Source of the DNA: Oceanospirillaceae bacterium
Lineage (GTDB): Bacteria; Pseudomonadota; Gammaproteobacteria; Pseudomonadales; Balneatricaceae
Direction: 5' to 3'
NCBI GenBank assembly: GCA_013373085.1
Contig: JABXIM010000025.1
Span: forward strand, 62,001 to 126,000
DNA length: 64,000 nucleotides
The translations under genes and the position numbers were made by a program. The notes under the pieces are model-generated. The model ran no database searches, was not told the DNA's origin, and saw only the letters and a list, made by a program, of their open reading frames with translations. Shown here piece after piece: positions 22,326-54,627 of the stretch (position 1 is its first letter; the number at the start of each line of letters is the position of its first letter).

Positions 22326-22452
22326 GTTGGGTGAAGGCAGGAACGGCCGTAACCGCCATGGAAGGTGGAAATACTGGCACTGCAGGAGCAAATGCCAGTG
22401 AACCCAACGCTTTTAGTGCCGACCGGCACCAACCGGTCTGCACTGCGATCAA
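22326..22452 (+). repeat. Structured intergenic repeat, copy 1
   Basis: An outer stem GTTGGGT (22326-22332) / ACCCAAC (22402-22408) encloses two hairpins. Hairpin 1 is CCGCC (22353-22357) / GGTGG (22364-22368). Hairpin 2 is ACTGGCA (22373-22379) / TGCCAGT (22393-22399) around a GCAGGAGC loop. A third, partly decayed hairpin follows at about 22430-22452. The same module recurs at 28708-28808 and 54433-54560. No credible gene lies in 22218-22681. Confidence 0.7.
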
Positions 22453-28695: not shown

Positions 28696-28707
28696 AGGAC
28701 CGCCTGA

Positions 28708-28808
28708 CCTCCATGGACGGAGGAAATGCAGGCATTGCAGGAGAAGATGTCAGTGAAACACATCACCAGGGTATCAACCGACACCAATCGATCTGTACAG
28801 CGATCGAT
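28708..28808 (+). repeat. Structured intergenic repeat, copy 2
   Basis: Hairpin 1 is CCTCC (28708-28712) / GGAGG (28719-28723). Hairpin 2 is CAGGCA (28729-28734) / TGTCAG (28748-28753), with one mismatch and one G-T wobble around GCAGGAG. Hairpin 3 is ATCGATC (28787-28793) / GATCGAT (28802-28808), perfect. The outer GTTGGGT arm found in copies 1 and 3 is absent. Copies 1 and 2 bracket the transporter/fusion block at 22.7-28.7 kb. Confidence 0.7.
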
Positions 28809-28946
28809 ATGGCGGGTTCCCCTAAAACGGCTCCTGCGTTTTTAGGACTTCCACCGTCCCCGGCGGTTTCGCGATGCCCGCCCCCAGTCGGATATGGATA
28901 CCTGCCGATGAATCGCTACACCCACTCTCCGGTCGGAATTTCGTAG

Positions 28947-54300: not shown

Positions 54301-54432
54301 TGTCGACGGAGTGTCGTGATCGTTGGCCAAGCTTACCGTCTCTCCATGTACAGACTCAGTCAGGAAAGTATATGCCAGCCGCTTGTTATTCCGTTGAAAG
54401 CCGGAAACGCGGGATGGTTTTATTTTACTTAG

Positions 54433-54627
54433 GTTGGGTCAAGCGACGCAGGAGCGGACCGCCAAGGATGGCGGAAATACTGTCATTGCAGGAGCAAATG
54501 ACAGTGGACCCAACACCTGACTGCGGCACCCGAGGCCAATCGATCTGCACGGCGATCGATATGATGGGTTACGCCGCCCGTGATCCTGTGCCATTCGGCC
54601 CCCGCTGGGGTAGCGGCTCCACCCATC
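54433..54627 (+). repeat. Structured intergenic repeat, copy 3, with REP-like tail
   Basis: The best-preserved copy. Outer stem GTTGGGTC (54433-54440) / GACCCAAC (54507-54514). Hairpin 1 CCGCCA-agga-TGGCGG (54459-54474). Hairpin 2 ACTGTCATT (54479-54487) / AATGACAGT (54497-54505), loop GCAGGAGCA. Hairpin 3 ATCGATC (54539-54545) / GATCGAT (54554-54560). A REP-like pair GATGGGT (54563-54569) / ACCCATC (54621-54627) follows. It fills the gap between the MFS and LysR genes; no gene is seen there. Confidence 0.75.

What the first reader, a model, noticed from the sequence alone, without database searches (positions are those of the whole stretch)
54433..54627. Three-hairpin intergenic repeat whose copies keep pairing by compensatory changes
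Three copies of one module occur at 22326-22452, 28708-28808 and 54433-54627. Hairpin 1 reads CCGCC/GGTGG, CCTCC/GGAGG and CCGCCA/TGGCGG. In hairpin 2 one pair is G-C, G-T and T-A in copies 1, 2 and 3, while the loop GCAGGAG is constant. Hairpin 3 is a perfect ATCGATC/GATCGAT in two copies. Bases change but stems stay, which suggests selection on a folded RNA or DNA structure, not just a decaying spacer. It fits no RNA family I recognise.
Basis: partly seen in the sequence, partly recalled or inferred. Interest (0 to 1): 0.62.

Follow-up and report, generated by a model that had tools for sequence, protein, structure and literature searches.

The report
Two-hairpin mobile repeat nested in palindromes
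A piece of DNA about 50 letters long that folds into two small hairpins occurs tens of times in this marine bacterium's genome and in many relatives, often inside other fold-back repeats, and its folding is kept by paired changes, mainly on one strand.

Summary
Hairpins 1 and 2 form one module of about 50 nt: 4 copies in the window, 81 model matches in the genome. Hairpin 3 belongs to the host repeat (a BIME-like pair of inverted palindromes) and hardly covaries. Over 51 aligned copies, 12 of 16 pairs change on both sides (125 cells against 44.6 shuffled; 0/500 reach it); 56 further matches agree. No Rfam family reaches its cut-off in the window. In a class sample, 61 of 369 genomes (this one included) have a match; one genome has at least 150. 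Three of the window's four copies interrupt palindromes with RACC on both sides. The nearest sister genome has the host repeat without the module in two of the same spacers. Both loops carry GGA, as CsrA/Rsm sites do. Yet G-U outnumbers A-C on the GGA strand even where that strand is antisense between co-directional genes (15:3). I therefore favour a REP-like mobile element read as a folded single DNA strand. No transposase is tied to it (0 modules in 35 Y1-transposase loci), target repeats are rare outside Marinobacterium, and a CsrA-binding RNA remains a serious rival.

The parts
54456..54507 (+). module copy 3: hairpin 1 (54459-54474, loop AAGGAT) and hairpin 2 (54479-54505, loop AGGA, one bulged base)
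   Evidence: R1 match 75.9 bits; DNA fold z -7.88
54461..54510 (+). the 50 bp absent from the sister genome's repeat; GGACC stands on both sides (54456-54460 and 54506-54510)
   Evidence: alignment with the G373 spacer L199
54433..54514 (+). left REP-like palindrome interrupted by the module: GTTGGGT (54433-54439) pairs with ACCCAAC (54508-54514)
   Evidence: sequence; RNA fold of 54425-54600; uninterrupted paralogues L031, L045
   Evidence: almost no covariation in 47 distinct copies
54564..54626 (-). right, inverted REP-like palindrome (ATGGGT...ACCCAT) without a module
   Evidence: sequence
22350..22401 (+). module copy 1
   Evidence: R1 match 71.0 bits
22326..22408 (+). left REP-like palindrome holding copy 1 (GTTGGGT...ACCCAAC); AACC on both sides of the module
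   Evidence: sequence; the sister genome has an uninterrupted composite after trpA
28705..28756 (+). module copy 2a; the flanking palindrome is decayed here and RACC is not repeated
   Evidence: R1 match 59.7 bits; sequence
28787..28808 (+). hairpin 3 of the second composite
   Evidence: sequence
   Evidence: R1 match 50.9 bits; parse

Best explanation
The module is a small non-autonomous, REP-like mobile element, recognised and copied as a folded single DNA strand (the GGA strand). SHOWN: it is a pair of hairpins with conserved GGA loops, a usual one-base bulge and freely covarying stems; it occurs in 1 to at least 150 copies per genome; in Marinobacterium it interrupts other palindromes, in part with RACC repeated at both ends, and is missing from the same kind of repeat in a sister genome; its folding is favoured on one strand whatever the direction of neighbouring genes. 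INFERRED: an enzyme encoded elsewhere (HUH/Y1-like, or an insertion-sequence transposase that targets palindromes) reads loops and bulge on single-stranded DNA and places a copy at the exposed loop region of palindromes. Stems can then vary so long as they pair, which gives the compensatory changes. Tandem arrays of period 49-50 arise by repeated insertion or slippage.
For: Covariation: 12 of 16 pairs with both-side changes, 95.3% paired cells, 0/500 shuffles reach the observed values; a second set of 56 matches, none identical to a sequence of the first, 13 of 16 pairs and 95.8% (there 21/500 shuffles reach the number of pairs, 0/500 the other four measures). Loops: GGA of both loops and the A of loop 1 are invariant in the 51 rows of A1 (in the 66 distinct parses the A is G once). 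One-base bulge in 56 of 66 parses, A or G in 51 of those 56. Strand: G-U 55 vs A-C 22 on the GGA strand over 88 copies (p=2e-4); 15 vs 3 in 25 antisense copies and 11 vs 3 in 14 sense copies between co-directional genes; 29 vs 9 on pairs left free by the search pattern. Mobility: sister-genome repeats without the module; 81 matches in this genome, 40 and 55 in two congeners and at least 150 in G249; tandem copies 50 bp apart in G370 and 49 in G249. Target: RACC-like 4-mers flank the module directly in 25 of 87 copies, identical on both sides in 20 of the 25. Position: outer inverted repeats in 20 of 109 copies at score >=20 against 2.6% of exchanged flanks (3 of the 20 come from each of two genomes). 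Published: TnpA-REP reads single strands in a strand-specific way through loop and bulge (PMC8266576, passages); insertion sequences target REPs (PMC1525189, passages).
Against: No enzyme is tied to it: 0 modules in 35 Y1_Tnp loci of about 2-3 kb from 16 genomes. In G369 a module lies about 245 bp from a weak Y1_Tnp match, a single case outside those 35. No recurring neighbour gene apart from what I read as ubiquitous families. No leading/lagging bias among the listed matches of three genomes (49:40, 6:11, 5:13). RACC follows directly on the right in 11 of 21 copies here, 8 of 13 in M. nitratireducens, 4 of 9 in M. sedimentorum, 0 of 3 in M. profundum and 2 of 41 elsewhere, so a target duplication is not general, and HUH transposition should not make one (recalled). 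The sister-genome repeats may be separate insertions into the same spacers. About four in five copies show no strong outer inverted repeat within 14 bases.
Confidence: 0.55

Rival explanations
1. A CsrA/Rsm-binding RNA module: when transcribed, the two GGA-loop hairpins bind a CsrA dimer and act as a decoy or as a regulatory site in messages.
For: Hairpin 1 is a C-[ANGGAN]-G hexaloop with A, GGA and the closing pair invariant in the 51 rows of A1; RsmE was solved with an ANGGAN hexaloop (PMC7652899, passages). The second loop is AGGA, its GGA 22 nt after the first in the standard form (sequence). An Rfam RsmY match far below cut-off lies over a tandem array (22.6 bits, cut-off 57). Copy 3 folds as RNA into three AGGA hairpins inside the REP stem. 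G-U tolerance on the GGA strand fits RNA too, and is present in sense copies (11:3).
Against: Between co-directional genes the GGA strand is antisense in 29 and sense in 16 copies (p=0.07); outside this genome and M. nitratireducens 22 vs 8 (p=0.016). It is antisense between genes for PDH E1 and its acyltransferase, lgt and thyA, after infC, and between cytochrome-c assembly genes, so those messages carry UCC loops. Module frequency is 54 of 313 genomes with a CsrA match and 7 of 56 without: no clear dependence, though five of the seven are under 91% complete. Hairpin 2 has 11 pairs, while most CsrA SELEX ligands had four or fewer in a row.
Confidence: 0.22
2. No selection on folding: polymerase template switching keeps correcting imperfect palindromes, so both arms change together.
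For: This mechanism (quasipalindrome correction, recalled) could give paired changes in any palindrome, and the host repeats are palindromic too.
Against: It predicts loss of the off-centre bulge and no strand bias; the bulge is usual (56 of 66) and G-U exceeds A-C 55:22. Hairpin 3, a good palindrome in the same repeats, shows hardly any paired changes.
Confidence: 0.08
3. A transcribed 3'-untranslated or operon-spacer element like E. coli REPs, protecting or ending messages, the functional RNA being the UCC strand.
For: The module's edge lies 2-22 bp from a stop codon in L048, L056, L074, L107, L110 and L122, most of these genes confirmed by Pfam.
Against: The pairing preference lies on the opposite strand (15:3). 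The position fits equally well an insertion tolerated only there. Sense (16) and convergent (21) positions are also common.
Confidence: 0.1

Closest known systems
REP / BIME / REPIN elements with TnpA-REP (RAYT)
   Same: short extragenic palindromes, often in inverted pairs and arrays, many copies, strand-specific structure, bulge and loop features
   Different: two different hairpins in one unit, no GTAG tag at the module, no RAYT found beside it, nested inside other palindromes
RU-2, a 168-nt small mobile sequence of enterobacteria (PMC2759123, passages; recalled to be the same as YPAL)
   Same: RU-2 as printed contains GGA-loop hairpins (GCGCCAAGGATGGCGC, TACATGGATGTA). In a Marinagarivorans contig the module sits in a repeat sharing 28 exact bases with RU-2 (TCGAGCCTACATGGATGTATTTACGGCG; L106)
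   Different: RU-2 as printed has one hairpin of the hairpin-1 kind but no AGGA hairpin 2 beside it; it looks like a relative of one host repeat, not like the module
Insertion sequences that target REPs (IS1397, IS621, ISKpn1, ISPpu9)
   Same: insert into palindromic repeats (PMC1525189, passages)
   Different: this is about 50 bp, without a gene, and is itself a pair of hairpins
Rsm/Csr small RNAs (RsmY, CsrB)
   Same: hairpins with GGA in the loop; the RsmY consensus shown holds CCGCCcAGGAUGGCGG
   Different: dispersed copies, often antisense to the neighbouring genes, no transcript shown

Membership tests
GTAG-tagged REP with RAYT | GTAG (or like) tetranucleotide at the foot of the palindrome | tested here: not met
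   the module begins mostly TGACC, TAACC, AAACC, CGACC or GGACC in the copies read; the host left repeat in Marinobacterium often does begin GTAGG
GTAG-tagged REP with RAYT | Y1-family transposase gene flanked by the repeat | tested here: not met
   0 modules in 35 Y1_Tnp loci, out of 74 matches in all; one module about 245 bp from a weak match in G369
GTAG-tagged REP with RAYT | high copy number, outside genes | tested here: met
   at least 150 in G249, 81 here; 94 of 104 copies not inside a gene called by my script
CsrA/Rsm-binding RNA | GGA in the loop of a hairpin, ANGGAN preferred | tested here: met
   consensus from PMC7652899 passages; hairpin 2 has the tetraloop AGGA instead
CsrA/Rsm-binding RNA | the GGA strand is transcribed | tested here: inconclusive
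   more often antisense than sense between co-directional genes; no transcript data
CsrA/Rsm-binding RNA | CsrA binds it | not testable with these tools
   needs gel shift or CLIP
Rfam families (4227) | score at or above a family's gathering cut-off | tested here: not met
   0 matches in the window; RsmY 22.6 bits against cut-off 57 in L079
IS200/IS605-derived non-autonomous element | hairpins near both ends, fixed left flank, no target duplication (recalled) | tested here: inconclusive
   two hairpins and a conserved (N)RACC left flank, but RACC-like 4-mers recur on the right in 25 of 87 copies, 23 of them in Marinobacterium

The most novel reading that the evidence does not exclude
A widespread class of palindrome parasites: gene-less double hairpins of about 46 nt that an unidentified single-strand DNA enzyme copies into the exposed loops of whichever palindromic repeats a gammaproteobacterial genome happens to carry, with GGA loops and a bulged purine as the recognition code.
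Probability: 0.35. Interest if true: 0.72.

Novelty: new variant of a known kind. Interest (0 to 1): 0.52.

Why it matters
If right, there is a repeat family, absent from Rfam at its cut-offs, in roughly one in six sampled gammaproteobacterial genomes, whose structure can be tested strand by strand and which uses other palindromes as landing sites. Stems are free while loops and bulge are fixed, a natural experiment in how structured DNA spreads. It also warns that strong covariation, usually taken as the mark of a structured RNA, may come from DNA. If the CsrA rival is right instead, the repeats would be mobile binding sites for a global regulator.

Tried and rejected
Rfam at gathering scores (window) and with relaxed E-values (7 loci): nothing above cut-off for the module. 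TwoAYGGAY, an idea from memory: papers listed only; that family is not among the 5 matches at E<=1. RAYT as a neighbour-encoded mover: not supported. Lagging-strand bias: none found, using only the listed matches (95 of 150, 20 of 40 and 33 of 55, thinned to 89, 17 and 18), dnaA as origin, the terminus assumed opposite, and 5.0 Mb for G249. A gene that travels with the module: none beyond families I judged ubiquitous by eye. Plasmids 1 record (a Halomonas megaplasmid without annotated genes there), phages 0, E. coli genomes 0, all with one typed consensus query. Literature: searches listed no paper that I recognised as describing the module. Of the 31 papers holding a sequence word, 20 were listed and I opened one (PMC2759123). 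RepRanger paper: no Marinobacterium in its text (passages). GTAG/CGTC repeat paper: no GTTGGG word (passages). The library lacks most subscription papers. All papers were seen as listings, abstract starts or passages only; none was read whole.

Rows dropped or favoured before counts: A1 holds 51 of the 52 parses with a one-base bulge and a 5-base spacer; I left out L040, whose hairpin 2 is interrupted. The 14 other distinct parses (other bulge length or longer spacer, among them the window's minus-strand copy) are not in A1. The parser requires at least 4 of 5 and 7 of 10 standard pairs and the model favours paired copies, so percentages paired are inflated; A2 was fitted to the model. The G-U/A-C test on pairs left free by the search pattern lessens this bias but does not remove it. 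Gene calls are from my own codon-usage script; 15 flanking proteins at 8 loci and 5 in the window all have a Pfam match.

Full report
WHAT IS THERE. One search found 46 BLAST matches in the same genome. Reading them separates two things. The first is a host repeat: a left palindrome GTAGGTTGGGT...ACCCAACACC, a linker with the hairpin ATCGATC...GATCGAT, and a right inverted palindrome ATGGGT...ACCCATCCTACG, a BIME-like pair. Several copies have an empty left palindrome (for example L031, L019, L043). The second is the module, hairpins 1 and 2 together: (N)RACC-GCC-ANGGAY-GGC-GG-AAAT-N-CTGnnnnYGC-AGGA-GC-R-nnnnnCAG-N'. It sits in the left palindrome (22350-22401, 54456-54507), in the right one (28818-28869, minus strand), or, as in the second composite, in both (28705-28756 with a decayed left palindrome). 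The window has four modules.

COVARIATION. For 51 copies from this genome and named genomes (A1), 95.3% of cells pair, 12 of 16 pairs have changes on both sides, and 125 cells are changed on both sides against 44.6 in shuffles; 0 of 500 shuffles reach the observed values. Slid structures fall to 28-55% paired. A covariance model (R1) gave 56 matches in 43 further loci, 14 of this genome and 29 of other sampled genomes. None of the 56 sequences is identical to one in A1, and the 29 loci share no long stretch with the named loci. In this set 13 of 16 pairs vary on both sides with 95.8% paired cells (21 of 500 shuffles reach 13 pairs, none reach the other measures); it was fitted to the model. 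The base before hairpin 2 and the base after it also pair (C-G, A-U, G-C), giving 11 pairs. In A1, GGA in both loops, the A of loop 1 and the closing pairs are invariant; one base, usually a purine, is bulged near the tip of hairpin 2. The window's own minus-strand copy departs on both counts. Hairpin 3 shows no such pattern: 47 distinct copies, 29 perfect, almost no alternative pairs.

DISTRIBUTION. This genome: 81 matches at E<=0.01, with 150 of 3460 first-look candidates scored, so a lower bound. Same genus: 40 and 55 in two complete genomes; same order, G365: 11; a distant member of the class, G249: 150 of 150 scored candidates. In a sample of the class 61 of 369 genomes (this one included) have a match at E<=1e-4 with at most 15 candidates scored each. 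In a sample of the phylum 23 of 398 do, four of them outside the class, two of those strong. Their titles name taxa that I know as Gammaproteobacteria, such as Marinobacterium, Marinagarivorans, Zooshikella, Thiopseudomonas, Sedimenticola and Steroidobacter, or in one case (L145) only Proteobacteria. Most of the other stretches look like chance matches in coding DNA (by eye). One congener, G371, has a contig of 201838 bases, the length of a Marinobacterium sedimentorum contig; I infer that the window is from that genus.

MOBILITY. In the nearest sister, G373 (about 87-89% identical in the flanking genes), the spacer between the same two genes as copy 3 has the host repeat reading ...GCAGGAGCGGACCCAACACC without the module; the window has 50 bp more, with GGACC at both ends. 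The trpA spacer of copy 1 has in G373 a similar repeat with GTAACCCAACACC uninterrupted; the spacer of copy 2 has no such repeat. R1 finds no module in these G373 stretches, nor at the third site in the five other congeners, although G373 holds copies elsewhere. The host repeats may have arrived separately, so these are matched rather than proven orthologous empty sites. A RACC-like 4-mer follows the module directly in 25 of 87 copies and is identical to the one before it in 20 of the 25 (AACC/AACC 15, GACC/GACC 5). By host the counts are 11 of 21 here, 8 of 13 in M. nitratireducens, 4 of 9 in M. sedimentorum, 0 of 3 in M. profundum and 2 of 41 elsewhere. So a target duplication fits Marinobacterium only; elsewhere the left end is mostly TGACC or CGACC with no repeat. 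Arrays of period 50 (G370) and 49 (G249) occur. Around 20 of 109 modules the immediate flanks form an inverted repeat of score >=20, against 2.6% for flanks exchanged between genomes. Three of the 20 are from each of two genomes, and the arms differ between genomes (ATGCTGGT/ACCAGCAT, GTCGCGCG/CGCGCGAT, TTTCGGCAGC/GCTGCCGAAA). In one Marinagarivorans contig the interrupted repeat shares 28 exact bases with the published enterobacterial element RU-2. So in a fraction of cases the module sits at the tip of whatever palindrome is present.

WHICH STRAND. On the GGA strand, G-U pairs outnumber A-C mismatches 55 to 22 over 88 copies, and 29 to 9 when only pairs left free by the search pattern are used. 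Orientation to genes (own gene caller, 104 thinned copies): between co-directional genes 16 sense and 29 antisense; outside this genome and M. nitratireducens 8 and 22 (p=0.016); 21 convergent, 6 divergent, 10 inside a called gene, the rest with a neighbour missing. Pfam supports antisense copies between pyruvate dehydrogenase E1 and acyltransferase genes (L056), lgt and thyA (L107), after infC (L122), and between a cytochrome-c assembly gene and ccmE (L160); rpmI after the infC copy is my reading. G-U:A-C is 15:3 in the 25 antisense copies scored and 11:3 in the 14 sense copies. So the strand whose folding is guarded is the GGA strand whether or not it is the one transcribed with its neighbours. 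This points to a single DNA strand, or to RNA made only from source copies. It is not proof, because substitutions may be inherited from source copies.

CSRA. The loops match the CsrA/Rsm consensus closely (ANGGAN; PMC7652899, passages) and a weak RsmY match lies over an array. Against it are orientation and no clear dependence on csrA (54 of 313 genomes with a match, 7 of 56 without). Only 20 of the 56 negatives are listed; the others follow from absence in the positive list. Five of the seven are under 91% complete. I keep it as the main rival.

MOVER. Five Y1_Tnp matches are in this genome and 69 in 15 of 16 further genomes tested. In the 35 loci read there is no module; one further match in G369 has a module about 245 bp away. 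No recurring neighbour gene and no replication-strand bias were found. Published work shows that TnpA-REP reads single strands through loop and bulge (PMC8266576, passages) and that several insertion-sequence families target REPs (PMC1525189, passages). Either kind could act from elsewhere in the genome; neither is shown.

VERDICT. A real, strongly covarying, widespread two-hairpin repeat for which the searches found no name. It works like a REP-type mobile palindrome but fails the GTAG and RAYT tests of that family.

Noticed in passing
L009, L010, L012, L014, L034 (between hairpins 1 and 2): Copies carry an extra GC-rich insert (GGCCGCCCCGCGG, twice in a row in L010) between the two hairpins: a repeat nested in the module that is nested in a repeat.
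   Followed up: partly
L267, L268 (G370), L205, L214: Beside the module lie short hairpins with TCC/GGA loops and varied stems (GTACATCCTGTAC, GCGCATCCATGCGC), in mixed orientation, some next to terminator-like hairpins; in L267 and L268 the module appears to interrupt such hairpins. They look like a larger family of GGA-loop hairpins, to which parts of RU-2 would also belong.
   Followed up: partly
L106:3120-3290: Marinagarivorans repeat sharing 28 exact bases with the Yersinia RU-2 element printed in PMC2759123, interrupted by the module.
   Followed up: partly
L074:3605-3710: The module is flanked on both sides by the same 18 bases AAATAGGACTTATTTCCT, a longer direct repeat than RACC.
   Followed up: no
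L251-L265 (G249): In many of the G249 copies read, the module lies inside a longer repeat with outer arms like GGGTATGC/GCATACCC and further hairpins.
   Followed up: no
L106:4135-4420 (minus): Strong Rfam match to 5_ureB_sRNA (102 bits, cut-off 40) in a Marinagarivorans contig; it may simply reflect conserved coding sequence.
   Followed up: no
L098 near 1190-1250; L036: Short tandem repeats (CCCGTAA; GGGTATC) stand close to the repeats.
   Followed up: no
window 54440-54456: The host palindrome of copy 3 has its own CGC-AGGA-GCG hairpin, so the folded strand shows three AGGA loops inside one stem.
   Followed up: yes
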